A stretch of DNA of 64,000 nt from Pelomonas sp. BJYL3. GTDB taxonomy: Bacteria; Pseudomonadota; Gammaproteobacteria; Burkholderiales; Burkholderiaceae_C. Under the pieces are notes generated by a model, which made no database searches, was not told the DNA's origin, and saw only the letters and a list, made by a program, of their open reading frames with translations. Each line of letters starts with the position of its first letter. The stretch's first letter is position 1. The DNA lies in assembly GCF_027257975.1 (NCBI RefSeq), contig NZ_JANZKX010000002.1, positions 744,001-808,000 of the forward strand, in the 5' to 3' direction. Made by a program: the position numbers and the translations under genes. Shown here one piece after another: positions 13,252-22,820 of the stretch.

Positions 13252-15891
<2,640 letters not shown>

Positions 15892-15931
15892 TGCCTTTGA
15901 ATGCCTCGCTTTGGTGAGGCAATGGAATGAG

Positions 15932-15957
15932 AAACGCCCGGCCGGTCCGGGCGTTTT
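15932..15957 (+). terminator. Intrinsic terminator after gyrB
   Basis: Ten-bp stem AAACGCCCGG / CCGGGCGTTT with loop CCGGT (15942-15946) and a TTTT run at 15954-15957, 41 bases past the gyrB stop. The A-rich 5' arm would make it partly bidirectional, helping insulate gyrB from the converging cassette. Confidence 0.88.
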
Positions 15958-16195
15958 GCATGGCCGAGGAGATCCAAGGCCTGTGACGGATTTCGCAGTG
16001 CAACGAACGCTCCACGGGGGGGGGGCGGTTGGCTGCTTTGCAGCGGGTGCTGTCCTACGTCAGGCTGAGTTCGACTCCTGGATGCGGTCGTTCAACGTCG
16101 GCTCTCATGCCGCACCTTTCGATCGACGCCCGCAACGGCTTGTTGGCGTCTCGGCGCGGACTAGCAGCAGTAACTTAGCATGTGGCAATCGACCT
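15958..16195. other. Boundary region between gyrB and the reverse transcriptase cassette
   Basis: No credible gene. It includes a run of nine G (16018-16026 area) and the element GCGGTCGTTCAACGTCGGCT at 16084, which has a looser match in the same orientation at 21756 beyond the cassette. GC content falls through this stretch, consistent with an insertion edge. Confidence 0.35.
16084..16112 (+). repeat. Left copy of an imperfect direct repeat bracketing the RT cassette
   Basis: Begins GCGGTCGTT and continues CAACGTCGGCTCTCA. The partner at 21756-21785 begins with the same nine bases and continues GTCGAACTTCCGCTTTCA. Nine bases are identical, the rest only similar. Could be a remnant of an insertion boundary or a common intergenic repeat. 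Confidence 0.3.
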
Positions 16196-17143
16196 TCACT
16201 CCGCAGTGAATAGCCGCATCGTAACTGGCGACGGTCCTTCCGGGGATGCAGACGTGGGAGCGATGCTAGCCATGAAGCCTGGCGGCAAGTGCTTGTACGT
16301 GGCCTTTGGCTTGGTATCAGAACCATGAATGGCTGCATCTAGATCGCGTACGGGAAGCGAAACGCATTGAGCGGTGAATAGCTGTCCTCCATCGACTGAA
16401 TATCCAATACGCTTGAATGCATCGTAGTACGGGGTGACTACCAGCGAGCCACCGAAATATCCGGTATTGCAAACCACCACGTTGCAGAAGATCGTCCTCG
16501 ATAGAGAAACGGCTAACGACTCAAAGAGCTTAACGTCCCGGTTATAGGCAATGACAAACAAATGGTGAACTCGGCCGCGATAGAGGAGGGCGCGTTCAAT
16601 ATCCATGAAGTCATAGCAAATGCTGACCCCGATACGCCCATAGGGCCCTGCATCGAAGACGTAGACGTTGGGATCGGCATCGAAAGTCCAAGGCGGTATG
16701 TACTTCGCGAGGTCAGACGCTTCGGCCGGTGCAGGGTCCCGTTTGCCGAACCAAACTCTGGCGGCATTGCGTGAAGGTATGCGTTTCCAAAAGTTCCTGG
16801 GTACGATGACAAGTCCTTCGTTCTTCGCTGATTTCTTCACATGGTCTAGACGGTAGTCGACCCCAACTATCGCTATTGCATTCATGGAACAGACTAGTTG
16901 CTCGAAGTCGTCCAATCGCGTTCTAGGAAGTGCCAGCTCCGGCAGAAGAACGATGCGAGGCTGATCGTCGTGATCGGCCAATGCCCTCATCGCTCTTCGA
17001 ATCTCGTGCCACGCGCGATTGTCCTCGCCTGCCGCAATTTTTGGCTCACCACTAGCGGCACTCCATGCAAGCTTTGAGTTCAATGTCGTCTGAATTACGC
17101 CGAGGGTAAGCGAATCAACCAGTGTTGGATTATCTTGGGTCAT
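16196..17143 (-). CDS. Nitrilase-superfamily (carbon-nitrogen hydrolase) protein, third gene of the RT cassette
   Basis: 315 residues. The nitrilase triad is visible: Glu69 in IVLLPELALP, Lys134 in WFGKRDPAP and Cys176 in GVSICYDFMD. The family usually hydrolyses or transfers C-N bonds. The ATG overlaps the reverse transcriptase stop by four bases (ATGA), so the two are translated together. In UG1/DRT1 defence reverse transcriptases a nitrilase domain is fused to the RT; here it is a separate protein (my comparison, from memory of that family). Base composition is lower in GC than the flanks. Substrate unknown. A free-standing metabolic amidase is the alternative but the overlap argues against it. 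Confidence 0.88.
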   Translation of the reverse strand: MTQDNPTLVDSLTLGVIQTTLNSKLAWSAASGEPKIAAGEDNRAWHEIRRAMRALADHDDQPRIVLLPELALPRTRLDDFEQLVCSMNAIAIVGVDYRLDHVKKSAKNEGLVIVPRNFWKRIPSRNAARVWFGKRDPAPAEASDLAKYIPPWTFDADPNVYVFDAGPYGRIGVSICYDFMDIERALLYRGRVHHLFVIAYNRDVKLFESLAVSLSRTIFCNVVVCNTGYFGGSLVVTPYYDAFKRIGYSVDGGQLFTAQCVSLPVRDLDAAIHGSDTKPKATYKHLPPGFMASIAPTSASPEGPSPVTMRLFTAE

Positions 17144-20100
17144 GCTGGGCCCATTTCAAAGTAGCGCTTCCAATCAGCATCGGTGAGATGCATTAGATTG
17201 ACTGGCGTGACCTGCCGAGACTGGTGATTGAAGGTTGATATCTGATTTTCTTCAAGTTCGTTTTGGGCGATCGAGATGATGCGCGCCAAATCAGCAGCGT
17301 CAATAAGGCTGACTGGATCGTGCATAGTGTCATCGTCGAAGTCGGCGCTCCATGCTGGGTGCAGGCCGGCGAATACGTTCTCGGTTGCACGAGGCTGGAG
17401 ACACGCCTCGAGAATTCCAAGAGTTGCTGATGAGTAGGTGATTTCATTCCGCAGGAGTTGCGGAAGATGCCTGAGCATGCTCTCGTGCCCTATCCCGTTC
17501 CATTGGGCTGGCAGGAGGAAGGAGCGTGAAAGCAGGGCAAATAGGCAAAGGCCCAGACCACGAATTGGATTCTGCGCAGCCCCTATGGCGCTCACGACCA
17601 GCGGGGCATATCGCCTGTCATAGATCTGACGCCGTTGTGGCACTTGCCGTAGAACTCCACCGTCAGGCTCGCGCATCTTTTGTTTCCACTCTTGCCAAGA
17701 GACTGCCGGAGTATCGATGAGATGGCTCGGCAGAGCGAAGTTGAGTGGATGTGCACAGCTGACGCGTATATCAGGGTTCTTGCGCGATGCACGTTTAAGA
17801 TAGCCTTGGTCTAGCGTCTCGGCGGTAGTCGATAGCAGCATCGCCGCTTGTCTAACGATCTCCAGGCACGTCCATTCGCCGAGCCGCCATTGCTTTGTGA
17901 TTCCGGGGTCATGACTAGCCCAAATCCTTGTCGCCCAGACTGGCAAAGGCAGCAGTTTCGCTGTCTCAGATCCATCTAATGCTTTCTGGACACGAGACGC
18001 TGCCGGTGACAACGCACATACGCGCTGGACCTCCGGCCGATCGAAGCGCCCCATCAAGGCGTCAAGCCACCAGCCTTCTTGATTCGCTTGCTTTGGCCTA
18101 GCTGATGACGCGATCCGCGCTAGAGGCGCCATCGGCGCATCCGCAGGAAAAAAGGTCCATAGATCATCGGACTCGGGTAAGCCATTGACGAGCGTTCCCA
18201 GGTGAAGAATCAGATCAGACGCTCGACGAATAGGCTTACGGAGGTCGAACTTGCATCCCCACCAGGCTAGCGCAACGCGCTGATCTGGTGTCACATCATC
18301 GTTACTTAGCAACGCGCGACCCTTGTCGACAAATGAACGACTCAGCCCTTGCCCCAAGAGTCGCAATGAGCCCGGAGATCGTTCTAACAATAGGGTGGCG
18401 CAGTACACGCCGACGAAGAACTGATTCAGGCTTTTCTGTACAAACCATCGGTCTGCTGCCGGAACACCTCGATTGGTGAGCCTTGCAATATCTCGCAGAG
18501 ATCGCAGCGCGGCGGCTCGTCGCCAGCCTGCAGCATTGGTGTCAATAAGCAACTGTGCAGCCCGAACGGTCTCTGCAGCGAGGACTGCGTAGGAGTTGCC
18601 GAGTATGTAGCTTGCCGCCAGTCGATTGACCGGGTCGCGCGCATAGCGATCAATGTCATCGAAGAGAAGTTCTAATCCCGTGGCGCCAAGGCGGCGCGCA
18701 ATCGTCAGCGCATGAGTCCACAGGCGGACGCGATCAGGCCGTTCGTGCAGGACTCTTCGGACCAAGCCAAATACTCTGTCGGCGATGCCGGCAAGTCGGG
18801 CGTGAATCTCGGCGTCGTTGATCCCAGTAAGACTCGCGTTTGCATCGAGTGTAGAGTCTTGGCCATTGCGGCCCTTAGCTTGACTTCCGGTCAGGCGGCT
18901 TTGCTGAGCACTACCGTTTCGAATACTGAGGGTTTCCGGTGCCGCGAGCCTAGCTTCGGCGATACGGGCAAGGCGAGTCGCCGCGAATGCCAGACGCGTG
19001 CGCCCCGGCATCTCAGATTCAGGAACCTCTACGAGCAATAGATGCTCCAACTGTTGGGACAGAATTGAGAGCTCGTTATCTTCGAGCACCGTGAAATCTG
19101 TTCTGCCAATTGCCGAAACAAGGGCAATCGTCTTCGTCATCAATGGCGTTGGAAATTCGGAATCTAGGCGGCACTCGTCCAGGGCCCGATTCCACTGATC
19201 CGACCCGGCAACGCGGTTGCTTGCATCGCTTGTTCCTAGCAGCTCACCTAAAGCTTTCGGTTCTGTTTTGGCCGGGTTGATGCTGGCGCCAGAGCCCATC
19301 CTTTCGATCACGTCCTTGTAGTGGTCGATCCAATTCACTAATTCCTCAAACGTCTTGGCCAATATCACATGGTCATCGACATAGCGAAAATGCGCGACGC
19401 GTCCCCTTGGAAGCGATTTCTGTACTTCTTGGTCAACCTGCAAGAGCGCTGCATTTGCGAGGAACCCTGACACCATGAGCCCAGTGGGAATTCTGCGGAA
19501 GGTCTTCCTTGACTCGGCAAGCTCTATGTGCCTTAGGTCAGTATCTGTCCAACCCTCAAGGTCCAATGGAAGCAGCGTGAGTGTTTTCAACAGCCTTTGA
19601 ACATCAGGGCGCAGTTCGACCGGGACGGACTGAGAGATTGCGTCAACGCAAGCTGCGAGGGGAATGGACGGATAGAACTTCTCCAAATCAACTGAAGCCC
19701 AGTAGACATCGCTCCTGTTTGCGTCAGTTGCCAAGGATGTCCAATAATCAGCGAAAACGAATGGACATCTATCGGCCTTGTGCATGCGATGTTGAAGGTC
19801 AAGCTCTTCGCGCTCATCCTCGTCGAGGTTGTCAACCTTTTCATGACCGTGCGCCGCAGCAGAAACCGCTAACGCAACGTGCCGCCTAAACAGTGGCCAG
19901 GCCTGCTGAAACGGGCGGTAGATTCGGCCGGATGAGTGTCTGTATGGGCCGACCTTCCTAATCTTGTTATTGTGAATGTCTTCTTCAATCCATGCAGACC
20001 GGAACAGTCGGTTACCATAGCTCCAAACAGGCATCTGCGCATCGACGTAGGGCCCAAGGACATTCACGACCGCCACCCAGGCGACTTGATCTCTAACCGC

Positions 20101-20364
20101 AAAGTGGAAGTACTGTCTAACTCTGGGGTTCCCATCTCCATCAGGGTTTTTTGGAAACGCCATGGGCCGAATCGGCGACATTCGGAATTTTCCAGTGCGT
20201 AGATCATCGCAAAGGCTCTGAAGCTCACGACCCAAATGAACTTCAAAAGAGGCAAGGTCCGCCTCGTCGATCCAGATGTCGCCAGGGACAGATGCTCTCT
20301 TCACTTTCTCCCAGGCCCAACGTATGTTCAGTTGATCGCATACCTGACTCAAGAAGCTACGCAT
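17140..20364 (-). CDS. UG/DRT-like reverse transcriptase with long alpha-helical C-terminal region
   Basis: 1074 residues. RT palm motifs are in order: motif A SVDLEKFYPSI (Asp226), a motif-B-like RIPTGLMVSGFLANAAL (~291-307), and motif C FRYVDDHVIL (328-331 YVDD), then a SINPAKTE segment. N-terminal to this lies RPMAFPKNPDGDGNPRVRQY, resembling the RT fingers. About 700 residues follow with no known enzyme domain, rich in helix and Leu/Arg repeats, as in the helical-repeat C-terminus of Abi/UG reverse transcriptases. There is no group II intron maturase or retron msr/msd signature. It overlaps the primase stop by eight bases and the nitrilase start by four. An abortive-infection or phage-defence role is inferred from family and operon, not shown. 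Confidence 0.9.
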   Translation of the reverse strand: MRSFLSQVCDQLNIRWAWEKVKRASVPGDIWIDEADLASFEVHLGRELQSLCDDLRTGKFRMSPIRPMAFPKNPDGDGNPRVRQYFHFAVRDQVAWVAVVNVLGPYVDAQMPVWSYGNRLFRSAWIEEDIHNNKIRKVGPYRHSSGRIYRPFQQAWPLFRRHVALAVSAAAHGHEKVDNLDEDEREELDLQHRMHKADRCPFVFADYWTSLATDANRSDVYWASVDLEKFYPSIPLAACVDAISQSVPVELRPDVQRLLKTLTLLPLDLEGWTDTDLRHIELAESRKTFRRIPTGLMVSGFLANAALLQVDQEVQKSLPRGRVAHFRYVDDHVILAKTFEELVNWIDHYKDVIERMGSGASINPAKTEPKALGELLGTSDASNRVAGSDQWNRALDECRLDSEFPTPLMTKTIALVSAIGRTDFTVLEDNELSILSQQLEHLLLVEVPESEMPGRTRLAFAATRLARIAEARLAAPETLSIRNGSAQQSRLTGSQAKGRNGQDSTLDANASLTGINDAEIHARLAGIADRVFGLVRRVLHERPDRVRLWTHALTIARRLGATGLELLFDDIDRYARDPVNRLAASYILGNSYAVLAAETVRAAQLLIDTNAAGWRRAAALRSLRDIARLTNRGVPAADRWFVQKSLNQFFVGVYCATLLLERSPGSLRLLGQGLSRSFVDKGRALLSNDDVTPDQRVALAWWGCKFDLRKPIRRASDLILHLGTLVNGLPESDDLWTFFPADAPMAPLARIASSARPKQANQEGWWLDALMGRFDRPEVQRVCALSPAASRVQKALDGSETAKLLPLPVWATRIWASHDPGITKQWRLGEWTCLEIVRQAAMLLSTTAETLDQGYLKRASRKNPDIRVSCAHPLNFALPSHLIDTPAVSWQEWKQKMREPDGGVLRQVPQRRQIYDRRYAPLVVSAIGAAQNPIRGLGLCLFALLSRSFLLPAQWNGIGHESMLRHLPQLLRNEITYSSATLGILEACLQPRATENVFAGLHPAWSADFDDDTMHDPVSLIDAADLARIISIAQNELEENQISTFNHQSRQVTPVNLMHLTDADWKRYFEMGPA

Positions 20365-21427
20365 TTATTCCTCGCGCGATAACGTCACTGGCATCCATGT
20401 CTTTAGGTGGAACTGCAAACCGAATGCTCTTGCTTCTAGCTCGAAATTCCTTTGCAAGGAACTTCATGAATTTTTCACCTGCAGCGTCACCGTCGGGAAC
20501 GCCCACCAACTCAAAAGGAAGTAATTCATCAACCCATTCAGACCGGAATGAGGTTGCCCCTAGAACCGCAACCGCTGCTAGCCCGGCGCCCTCCATTGCA
20601 ATTGCGTCTGGCACACCCTCGCAAATGTGGAGAAGACTCCCTGGCTGCAACTGGCTAAGTCGCTGGCTGTTAAACATGGGTTTGGGGATGCCACTCGGGC
20701 CGAAGAACTTCATCCTGCTCTGAAGGCAGCGAACCTGTAAGTACTGCGTAGTCGCCCCGGACTTGAAAGGGAACAGCAATGCGTACCCAAGCCAGCTTAG
20801 TGCTCGTCGATTTCCAGACAGCCCTGAGCTACGGATTCGTTCTGCACCCCAATGTTTTTCCAGTTCCCGATACGCCCTTATCGGATCCACGAGTTCAACG
20901 ACGCCGAATTTAAGCGCCAGCTCCGGTGCAATTCCGTGGGCTTGAAGATACGTAGTTCCCAGCGCTCCTTTGACCGGGCCACAGTGCGCTACTAGCCAGG
21001 TGTACAGCTCGGGGTCTGGATTCGTCGTGGTGGCCGGAAGAGGCGATTTGCTTGCCTTTGGGCTTGTCGCTCGCGAAATTGCATGAATGCGTCGGCTTGG
21101 CTGCACGTCGCCGCCGATGATGCCGAAGTGGCCGCAGAGCCACTTACAGGCATCCATAAACGCAAGGCCGTGCATCTTTTGGACTAGCGCGATTGCGTCG
21201 CCATGCTCACCGCATCCGAAGCATTTCCAGGTATTTCTCGTTCTGTTGACGGTGAAGCTTGGGCTCGCTGCGTCGTGGCCGTTAAAGCACATCGCCTTGT
21301 TGCCACGCAGGGTGATCCCTACGGCCGATGCGACGTCCGCCACTGGCAAGTCGCGAAGGCGCGCAAGCACCTGATCGCTCAATGGCCTCGGCTTGGCTGC
21401 TTGTAAGCTGGCTCGCCGCAAAAGCAC
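20357..21427 (-). CDS. DnaG-like primase (CHC2 zinc finger + Toprim), first gene of the RT cassette
   Basis: 356 residues. An N-terminal zinc ribbon has Cys47, His51, Cys69 and Cys72 (MCFNGHD ... WKCFGCGEHGDAI), the CHC2 pattern of bacterial primases and plasmid/phage primase-like proteins. The C-terminal Toprim domain shows HICEGVPDA (Glu270) and VGVPDGDAAGEK (Asp312, Asp314). There is no DnaB-binding C-terminal domain, so this is not the housekeeping DnaG. GTG at 21427 (or TTG at 21421) follows AAGGGGGG. The last codons overlap the RT start, which has GAGGAA as ribosome site. The likely biochemical link is RNA primer synthesis feeding the RT (inference). Confidence 0.87.
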   Translation of the reverse strand: MLLRRASLQAAKPRPLSDQVLARLRDLPVADVASAVGITLRGNKAMCFNGHDAASPSFTVNRTRNTWKCFGCGEHGDAIALVQKMHGLAFMDACKWLCGHFGIIGGDVQPSRRIHAISRATSPKASKSPLPATTTNPDPELYTWLVAHCGPVKGALGTTYLQAHGIAPELALKFGVVELVDPIRAYRELEKHWGAERIRSSGLSGNRRALSWLGYALLFPFKSGATTQYLQVRCLQSRMKFFGPSGIPKPMFNSQRLSQLQPGSLLHICEGVPDAIAMEGAGLAAVAVLGATSFRSEWVDELLPFELVGVPDGDAAGEKFMKFLAKEFRARSKSIRFAVPPKDMDASDVIARGINA

Positions 21428-21495
21428 CCCCCTTGCGCCAGTTTCTGGCTTCTTACAAAAATTGTCTCATGGAGATGACGAGATGGGGCTGCGAA

Positions 21496-21720
21496 TCATC
21501 TGACATCTGGACGCACTGAGTACGTAGATGCGGCGGCCATTGCAAGCAAAGTTGCTACGGCAAGGATCCCACCAGAGATCCATGTGCTCATCTCCCTTTG
21601 CATAGTGAACAGCAGCGTAAAGATCGACTTGATTTGCGCAAGGTCGGTAGCGAACCGGGCTTGGTGCAGCGCCTCAACGCAGGCTATCCGCCGTACGGCA
21701 GTTGCTAGCTGACTAGTATG
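21496..21720 (-). pseudogene. Remnant encoding a C-terminal coiled-coil/membrane segment
   Basis: The frame reads RFATDLAQIKSIFTLLFTMQ followed by REMSTWISGGILAVATLLAMA and stops at 21496. That is an amphipathic stretch then one transmembrane helix, the layout of tail-anchored coiled-coil proteins. No ATG, GTG or TTG occurs upstream within this conserved-looking part except the ATGs at 21603 and 21591, which would give only ~35 residues. I read it as a truncated gene lying upstream of the primase, or possibly a very short membrane peptide. Confidence 0.3.
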
Positions 21721-21755
21721 TGGTTGCTTAGGGCGGAAAACTGAAGTGCCGTGAA

Positions 21756-21785
21756 GCGGTCGTTGTCGAACTTCCGCTTTCAGCC
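21756..21785 (+). repeat. Right copy of the imperfect direct repeat
   Basis: Starts with the same GCGGTCGTT as 16084 and has a similar continuation (GTCGAACTTCCGCTTTCA). It lies just inside the point where host-like GC content resumes, 12 bases beyond it the NERD gene ends. Confidence 0.3.
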
Positions 21786-21797
21786 TTAACCCGCCCC

Positions 21798-22727
21798 TCA
21801 CCCACCCTGACACCCCCTGCAATACTGCAACCCCCCAAACCTCTCCCCCTGATTCCAACAAAACCTCCCCTCCGAAAAACTGATCTTCGCCTCGCACGTC
21901 GCGCAAACCAGTTTTCGATACAGGGGATGGCTGGAATCAGCCTGAGCGGAGGGCTCCGGCACAGAAACCTTCGGAGCCGGATCAGGCGCAATTACCGCCT
22001 TCGGCTTCATGAACTCCGGCAACTCCAGCGGATTCACCGGCCGATGCTGCCGGGCCAATTTCTCTGCCCAGCCGCGCAAGGTCTCGGTGCTGTGGATGTT
22101 CAGCAGCTTCCCGAACACATCCCCCACGCCCAGGGACTCGATGTACTGCTCATGCCAGCGCTGGATCATGTCGGCCTTGATCACGTCGCGGGTGTCGAAG
22201 CGCTTGGCGTCAGGCCGGCGGATGGTGGCCTTGGGGTGCAGCAGCACCACGTGGTGATAGGTCGGCTTCAAGCTGCCTCGCCCGGTGATATCCAGGCGCT
22301 CCAGCAGCTTGTCCAAAATGCGCTCATGCCGCCGGCTCTGCTCCAGCGGTGAGGGCACGCCATAGCGGCGGCCATTGGCGTAGGCAACGCTCCACTCGCC
22401 CTGCTCATTGATCTCCACATCCCCACCGAAGCACTTGGTCTCGAACAGATAGAAGTGCAGGGTGCGGCCGATGACCAGGTGGTCGATCTGCGCCGTCTCG
22501 CCATCGACCACGAAGCGCAGGTCGTGCAGCACGGCGTGGTGCTCGCTGTCCTTCTTCCAGTGGTCGATGTGATGGGCGGCCTCGCGCTCGCCCTGCTGCC
22601 CGCGCTGGCACCGCATCCGCTCGTCCTGCAGCCACTCCCGCTGACGCTGATCCAGCAAGGGCGACGACTGCAGGTCTTCCAGCAAGCGCATCCGCCGCTG
22701 CTTGTCATCCGCTGCTTTGATCAGCAT
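21798..22727 (-). CDS. NERD-domain protein with C-terminal zinc ribbon
   Basis: 309 residues. The NERD (nuclease-related) domain covers about residues 45-165: QGEREAAHHIDHW, then HDLRFVVDGETAQIDHLVIG and FYLFETKCFGGDVEIN, which carry the conserved Asp/Glu-x-Lys positions of the restriction-endonuclease-like fold. A Cys-rich tail (VCATCEAKISF ... YCRGCQGG) forms a probable zinc ribbon. NERD proteins are thought to process DNA. It is GC-rich like the host and separated from the primase by ~370 bases, so it is probably not part of the RT operon although it stands next to it. Confidence 0.85.
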   Translation of the reverse strand: MLIKAADDKQRRMRLLEDLQSSPLLDQRQREWLQDERMRCQRGQQGEREAAHHIDHWKKDSEHHAVLHDLRFVVDGETAQIDHLVIGRTLHFYLFETKCFGGDVEINEQGEWSVAYANGRRYGVPSPLEQSRRHERILDKLLERLDITGRGSLKPTYHHVVLLHPKATIRRPDAKRFDTRDVIKADMIQRWHEQYIESLGVGDVFGKLLNIHSTETLRGWAEKLARQHRPVNPLELPEFMKPKAVIAPDPAPKVSVPEPSAQADSSHPLYRKLVCATCEAKISFSEGRFCWNQGERFGGLQYCRGCQGG

Positions 22728-22820
22728 GTGTCATGACCCCCTGAGTGCGAGTCATTTTGGCCGTGCGCCTGCCGTACAAGCAGGTCACATGTCACGCTTC
22801 AGGGGCCTGGCAGACGCGGG

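What the first reader, a model, noticed from the sequence alone, without database searches (positions are those of the whole stretch)
16196..21427. Three-gene primase / reverse transcriptase / nitrilase cassette next to gyrB
Seen in sequence: three minus-strand frames overlap by 8 and 4 bases: DnaG-like primase (CHC2 Cys47-His51-Cys69-Cys72; Toprim Glu270, Asp312, Asp314), a 1074-residue RT (Asp226, YVDD 328-331, ~700-residue helical tail) and a nitrilase (Glu69, Lys134, Cys176). All catalytic residues are present. GC is visibly lower than in gyrB. Known: UG1/DRT1 reverse transcriptases in phage defence carry a nitrilase domain fused to the RT, and UG/Abi RTs have helical-repeat C-termini. Inference: this is a related defence module in which the nitrilase is free and a primase is added, perhaps supplying an RNA primer for template-independent or specific cDNA synthesis. 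I do not recall a characterised system with this trio.
Basis: partly seen in the sequence, partly recalled or inferred. Interest (0 to 1): 0.88.

Follow-up and report, generated by a model that had tools for sequence, protein, structure and literature searches.

The report
Bacterial antiviral operon with added primase
Three overlapping bacterial genes encode a primase, a reverse transcriptase and a nitrilase that look like a split-up relative of a known anti-phage system (DRT1) with a primase added; the family is already catalogued, but I found no account of what the primase does.

Summary
In detail: three minus-strand genes overlap by 8 and 4 bases, and the named catalytic residues are invariant in the relatives aligned. 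The kind is not new: PADLOC-DB 2.0.0 has a DRT model for each protein (RT_UG6, RTasDnaG-like, RTasNitrilase), all matched at E below 1e-110. All 8 genomes found with this RT carry the trio, with the same order and overlaps; they are close relatives (RT identity 79-86%). The RT aligns to DRT1-type RTs over 407 columns (E 8.7e-18) and the nitrilase to the DRT1 C-terminus (E 4.1e-15), whose essential Cys1116 matches Cys176. So it reads as a split DRT1 plus a minimal DnaG-type primase. A second catalogued class, UG29, holds primase, RT and a putative nitrilase in one chain. Best explanation: abortive-infection defence in which RT-made DNA controls the nitrilase and the primase starts strands for the RT, most likely the second strand. 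Membership in UG6 is solid; defence activity and the primase step are inferred.

The parts
20357..21427 (-). DnaG-type primase, 356 aa: CHC2 zinc finger (C47, H51, C69, C72), basic region, Toprim (E270, D312, D314); ends just after Toprim, no helicase-binding domain
   Evidence: PADLOC RTasDnaG-like E 1.4e-114; Pfam Zn_ribbon_DnaG and Toprim_2; hhalign to 23 DnaG sequences from other genomes E 1.7e-21, 322 columns, residues 7-356
17140..20364 (-). UG6 reverse transcriptase, 1074 aa: region homologous to the DRT1 RT up to about residue 472 (D226, YVDD 328-331), then a ~600-residue C-terminal tail
   Evidence: PADLOC RT_UG6 E 0, 1245.8 bits; Pfam RVT_1; hhalign to 3 Drt1a proteins E 8.7e-18, 407 columns
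16196..17143 (-). Free nitrilase, 315 aa, Glu69-Lys134-Cys176
   Evidence: PADLOC RTasNitrilase E 2.5e-113; no Pfam match at E<=0.1; only PDB match at E<=0.1 is DRT1 9YFD, E 5.1e-11, C176 on C1116
21428..21794 (-). Upstream block without a recognised gene, shared in pieces (about 70-83% identity) with trio loci in otherwise different surroundings: probable promoter or regulatory region
   Evidence: no convincing conserved fold, no Rfam family above its gathering score
16021..16195 (-). Downstream block shared with several other trio loci, after which similarity ends: probable end of the transferred cassette

Best explanation
This is a UG6-type defence-associated reverse transcriptase operon: in effect DRT1 with its nitrilase split off as a separate protein and a minimal DnaG-type primase added. 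Shown here: gene order, homology of RT and nitrilase to DRT1, intact catalytic residues, purifying selection, presence in different genomic surroundings, constant co-occurrence among close relatives. Inferred from DRT1 (PMC13275509): on phage infection the RT makes DNA without a nucleic-acid template, and this DNA controls assembly of the nitrilase, whose unknown reaction stops the infected cell. Inferred here: the primase starts DNA strands for the RT; since DnaG enzymes copy single-stranded DNA (established knowledge), the likeliest step is laying a primer on RT-made single strands so that the RT completes a duplex, as DRT7 (preprint, second-hand) and DRT3 are also reported to end in duplex products.
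For: All three proteins match DRT models. The RT aligns to DRT1-type RTs from residue 5 to 472 (E 8.7e-18) and the nitrilase to the DRT1 C-terminus (E 4.1e-15). The nitrilase's only PDB hit is DRT1, with the catalytic Cys on Cys1116, whose C1116A mutation abolished immunity in the paper. In 220 genomes of the family the nitrilase model (E<=1e-10) was found in 11: as the free gene in 2 trio genomes, as the C-terminus of Drt1a fusions in 3 (scanned), in 1017-1070 aa frames in 4 and in short frames in 2 (these 6 not scanned); 1 of 14 control genomes also rang. The trio is in 8 of 8 genomes with identical overlaps. UG29 proteins hold primase, RT and a putative nitrilase in one chain in the same order (3 of 3 examined). 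A different primase fold is fused to the RT in UG10/DRT7. Two of two congeners lack the trio beside gyrB and have no UG6 RT or RTasNitrilase match at the thresholds used.
Against: No phage assay, product or structure for UG6 was found in anything I could read. DRT1 works without a primase, and none was found in three Drt1a and two UG5 loci, so the primase need not prime the RT. DRT7, the primase-RT with data, is reported as protein-primed. A DRT1-like priming serine was not excluded: one alignment gives Pro in 6 of 7 at that place, but an invariant Ser417 lies 15 residues further on. Of three short plasmid DnaG-like proteins put in a tree, the two near-identical ones from Manganitrophus group with this primase and sit beside a UvrD helicase, with no RT annotated within 7 kb. 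A published table lists a UG6 RT with only a nitrilase named in its neighbourhood. Defence-island context is not general: of 8 flanking proteins from five trio loci, defence models I would credit matched at two loci (L005, L009); a UvrA-like protein (read by eye) in L008 also matched mad3 strongly, probably as a related ATPase.
Confidence: 0.5

Rival explanations
1. Same DRT1-like defence, but the primase is the sensor or a regulator: it binds single-stranded DNA or replication proteins of the phage and passes the signal to the RT or nitrilase, without making primers that the RT uses.
For: DRT1 activity needs a phage single-strand DNA helicase, Dda; the zinc finger and Toprim core bind single-stranded DNA in DnaG (established knowledge).
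Against: The Toprim metal-binding residues are invariant in 8 of 8, which a pure sensor would not need; the domain that binds helicase in DnaG is absent.
Confidence: 0.2
2. The primase-like protein is a second effector: its Toprim domain cuts nucleic acid, as a Toprim effector does in retron Eco2, and the nitrilase and Toprim act together.
For: Eco2 is an RT-Toprim fusion with an effector role (abstract, passage); Toprim domains also occur in OLD-type nucleases (established knowledge).
Against: The protein aligns end to end with DnaG including the CHC2 finger and basic region; no OLD model matched it.
Confidence: 0.12
3. The trio is not defence: a mobile element's own replication or retrotransposition genes, such as a group II intron or retron.
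For: The RT matches the group II RT model weakly, best over residues 13-124 (53.6 bits), and the cassette looks mobile.
Against: The group II score is far below its cutoff of 300; no intron or retron RNA in 15850-22800; no maturase or endonuclease domain; RT_UG6 at 1245.8 bits.
Confidence: 0.06

Closest known systems
UG6 RT with RTasDnaG-like and RTasNitrilase (PADLOC-DB 2.0.0 models)
   Same: All three proteins match at E 0, 1.4e-114 and 2.5e-113.
   Different: The primase covers only positions 29-376 of a 550-position model and the nitrilase only 122-395 of 397.
DRT1 (UG1; Drt1a; structure 9YFD)
   Same: Homologous RT (407 columns) and homologous nitrilase with the same catalytic Cys.
   Different: DRT1 is one chain, with no primase in the three Drt1a loci examined; here the nitrilase is free and a primase leads the operon.
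UG29 (PADLOC RT_UG29; e.g. Polaromonas plasmid pPNAP05, WP_011798575.1)
   Same: Primase, RT and nitrilase-like module, in that order.
   Different: Single chain of about 2500 aa; nitrilase relation weak by profile (E 0.0094); its primase does not group with the UG6 primase in the tree.
UG10/DRT7 (RT fused to primase-polymerase)
   Same: A primase joined to a defence RT.
   Different: AE_Prim_S-like primase rather than DnaG; no nitrilase named in the passages seen.
UG5-nitrilase RTs
   Same: Homologous nitrilase (E 1.8e-14).
   Different: Fused to the RT; RT more distant (E 4.2e-5).

Membership tests
UG6 RT class (PADLOC) | RT matches the RT_UG6 profile better than any other model | tested here: met
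   1245.8 bits against 69.4 for the next model
UG6 RT class (PADLOC) | Accompanied by RTasDnaG-like and RTasNitrilase (their link to UG6 rather than another UG class is my reading of the names; the system rule was not seen) | tested here: met
   model matches for the window; homologues in 8 of 8 genomes
[quoted passage not shown]
Class 3 UG/Abi RT | Placement in the class 3 clade of a full UG/Abi phylogeny | not tested
   only pairwise profile comparisons with UG1, UG5 and UG29 were made
DRT1 (UG1) | RT and nitrilase in one chain | tested here: not met
   separate genes with a 4-base overlap
DRT1 (UG1) | Conserved priming serine (S402 in 9YFD) | tested here: inconclusive
   aligned column is Ser in 1 of 7 and Pro in 6 of 7, but the loop alignment is unsure and Ser417 is invariant
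DRT1 (UG1) | Template-free DNA synthesis, filament, nitrilase-dependent abortive infection | not testable with these tools
   needs experiment
DnaG-type primase | CHC2 finger, basic region and Toprim with Glu and DxD in one collinear alignment | tested here: met
   (E 1.7e-21)
DnaG-type primase | C-terminal helicase-binding domain (housekeeping DnaG) | tested here: not met
   protein ends at residue 356, 42 residues after D314
DRT7/UG10 | RT fused to an AEP-type primase | tested here: not met
   separate DnaG-type primase; no UG10 model among the 25 best of 44 for the RT
Group II intron RT | Group II RT model above cutoff, maturase domain, intron RNA | tested here: not met
   53.6 against cutoff 300; no maturase domain; no Rfam family above gathering score
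Retron | Retron RT model above cutoff and retron RNA | tested here: not met
   30.6 bits against cutoff 235; no Rfam family above gathering score

The most novel reading that the evidence does not exclude
UG6 and UG29 are minimal de novo DNA-writing modules that carry their own primase: the RT makes a single strand without template, the DnaG-type primase lays an RNA primer on it and the RT completes a duplex (or the primase starts the first strand itself), and this RNA-started DNA, not only a protein-linked adduct, switches the nitrilase. Primases of two unrelated folds (DnaG in UG6 and UG29, an AEP-type one in UG10) would then have been recruited independently by defence RTs.
Probability: 0.3. 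Interest if true: 0.8.

Novelty: new member of a known kind. Interest (0 to 1): 0.58.

Why it matters
How defence RTs start a DNA strand is an active question: DRT1 and DRT3b are shown to be protein-primed. UG6 offers the RT and nitrilase of DRT1 with a separate primase and a free effector, so each activity can be removed on its own. It could show whether the DNA must be covalently bound to the RT chain that carries the effector, and help find the nitrilase substrate.

Tried and rejected
AlphaFold2 of the RT (7 sequences) and primase (8 sequences) failed: mean pLDDT 33.6 and 36.1, so no fold search was run. Group II intron and retron: rejected. A conserved non-coding RNA upstream: 8 sequences of 150-160 bases gave a consensus fold of -4.26 kcal/mol with an unfavourable covariation term of +1.45; not supported, not excluded. 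The NERD gene at 21801-22727 as a fourth member: rejected, no homologue by tblastn in the other trio loci held, and a congener without the trio has similar DNA over about 490 bases around its N-terminal end at the same place. Reverse co-occurrence from the primase model was uninformative, since it rang in 385 of 399 genomes and 10 of 14 controls, evidently through DnaG. A single origin of the UG6 and UG29 primases was not supported by the tree, with very long branches. A single-sequence PDB search with the UG29 C-terminus found no nitrilase. The UG29 profile search also rang in one control genome, Thermotoga maritima, which I did not examine. No RT or nitrilase relatives in viral contigs, two weak primase relatives not followed; no RT relatives in plasmids or phages, no near DNA match to the trio in E. 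coli genomes. In the alignment four rows labelled UG5 (L075, L076, L077, L080) were partial or wrongly started and were used for no claim.

Full report
Observation. Three minus-strand ORFs lie at 20357-21427, 17140-20364 and 16196-17143, overlapping by 8 and 4 bases, at 55% GC in a window of about 69% GC.

Identity. PADLOC-DB assigns RT_UG6 (E 0), RTasDnaG-like (E 1.4e-114) and RTasNitrilase (E 2.5e-113). Pfam finds RVT_1, the DnaG zinc ribbon and Toprim_2, but nothing at E<=0.1 for the nitrilase. The kind is therefore catalogued as a candidate defence RT. I found no functional account in the held library: 'UG6' with 'reverse transcriptase' occurs in three papers, one of them on bacterial RTs; 'UG29' in none; and the searches on nitrilase, primase and defence RTs listed no study of this trio. 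The classification paper (Mestre 2022) is not held; nothing of it was seen.

Distribution. With the UG6 RT profile at E<=1e-30, matches were 1 of 398 genomes in the phylum draw (this genome only), 3 of 399 in the family draw and 1 of 369 in the class draw (this genome only). The genome-contig scan used two short peptide patterns and returned 8 loci from 7 genomes: Roseateles, Leptothrix, Hydrogenophaga, two Variovorax, Burkholderia sp. D-99 and Candidimonas, all of the order Burkholderiales (recalled). With the window that makes 8 genomes. All 8 carry primase, RT and nitrilase in this order with the same 8- and 4-base overlaps (window; six loci; Variovorax paradoxus 110B, whose RT is split between two contigs). 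RT identity to the window is 79-86%, so this says nothing about distant UG6 members. A published table names only a nitrilase beside one UG6 RT (PMC8934634, passages).

Mobility. The two congeners examined have no match to the trio between gyrB and the next shared DNA and no UG6 RT match in their genomes. The other loci have different neighbours. The cassette is 51-56% GC against 58-74% in the flanks (window and six loci). Shared DNA without a recognised gene extends about 230-515 bases upstream and about 145-193 bases downstream, 490 between the two Variovorax, and then stops; the Leptothrix locus shows no upstream match, and the Leptothrix and Candidimonas loci no downstream match, in those comparisons (only 299 bases of Leptothrix downstream DNA are held). 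Selection is purifying on all three genes.

Relation to DRT1. Profile comparison aligns the UG6 RT, residues 5-472, with three Drt1a proteins from the same bacterial family (E 8.7e-18, 407 columns), against 4.2e-5 for two UG5 and 3.1e-5 for three UG29 proteins; the nitrilase aligns with the Drt1a C-terminus (E 4.1e-15) and with UG5-nitrilase (E 1.8e-14) (Drt1a identity). In the PDB the nitrilase profile finds one sequence at E<=0.1, DRT1 9YFD, with Cys176 on Cys1116. Among plasmids it finds 14 records: 8 annotated as RT proteins; 5 annotated hypothetical or not at all in E. coli (2) and Sinorhizobium (3), of which one each was scanned and is RT_UG5-nitrilase; and one Bradyrhizobium protein with no RT model match outside its nitrilase part. 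No primase was found by tblastn or HMM in the three Drt1a and two UG5 loci, while the same search found the trio primase and the UG29 N-termini. For DRT1 I read the abstract and sections 5, 7, 9 and 10 of PMC13275509: template-free DNA synthesis primed from Ser402, a quiescent filament with a nitrilase core, loss of immunity on mutating either active site, and T4 escape mutants in the helicase gene dda.

The primase. It aligns collinearly with 23 DnaG sequences from residue 7 to 356 (E 1.7e-21), so it is a DnaG core that stops after Toprim. A tree of 26 sequences groups it with a short Toprim protein of Manganitrophus plasmids (support 97/93), which sits beside a UvrD helicase with no RT annotated nearby, and not with the UG29 primases; branches are long and placements unsure.

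UG29. Profile support for homology to the UG6 nitrilase is weak (E 0.0094), against 6.9e-16 for the primase. In 200 genomes around the L042 genome only that genome had a match.

How it may work. Inferred: infection raises or exposes RT-made DNA; the DNA state sets nitrilase assembly; nitrilase action ends the infection. The primase step is the open one. UG10/DRT7 joins an RT to a primase-polymerase and is reported, in a preprint known to me only through passages of PMC13213688, to make protein-primed, duplex-like DNA; DRT3 makes double-stranded DNA with two RTs (PMC13174585, abstract start and passages). A DnaG primase that starts the second strand would fit that pattern. Whether UG6 is also protein-primed is undecided.

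Verdict. An intact, conserved and apparently mobile member of a catalogued but, as far as I could see, uncharacterised kind, best described as split DRT1 plus primase.

Noticed in passing
window 21460-21479, minus strand; same place in L009, L011: An imperfect palindrome (ATTGTCTC ... GGGACAAT in the two Variovorax loci) about 30-55 bases before the primase start, possibly an operator; seen by eye in the alignment.
   Followed up: no
window 21801-22727: NERD nuclease-domain protein with a weak zinc-ribbon match, just upstream of the trio. A congener without the trio has similar DNA over about 490 bases here; no homologue by tblastn in the other trio loci held.
   Followed up: partly
L005:7001-8818: A NERD-UvrD helicase protein lies directly upstream of the Leptothrix trio and also matches PADLOC RTasNERD-Hel.
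   Followed up: no
L009:94-3755: ZorA3 and ZorB3 model matches about 5 kb upstream of the Variovorax sp. 679 trio; could be an ordinary chromosomal DUF802/OmpA pair.
   Followed up: no
DQ115810.1, 1108-2406: A 2438-base record labelled Cyanobacteria phage AS-1 encodes a stretch 48.8% identical to residues 785-1228 of the UG29 protein; perhaps a mislabelled fragment.
   Followed up: no
L060:7028-9899 and L061:6998-9869: Manganitrophus plasmids pair a short DnaG-like protein with an overlapping UvrD-type helicase.
   Followed up: partly
L064:4849-6726: Bradyrhizobium plasmid protein of 625 aa with apparently two nitrilase regions and no RT-domain match.
   Followed up: no
L081:8-6196 and L082:4827-6812: Two Drt1a genes sit behind a similar ~660-residue gene; in L081 a large methyltransferase-like gene (read by eye) precedes it, which may be a restriction island.
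   Followed up: no
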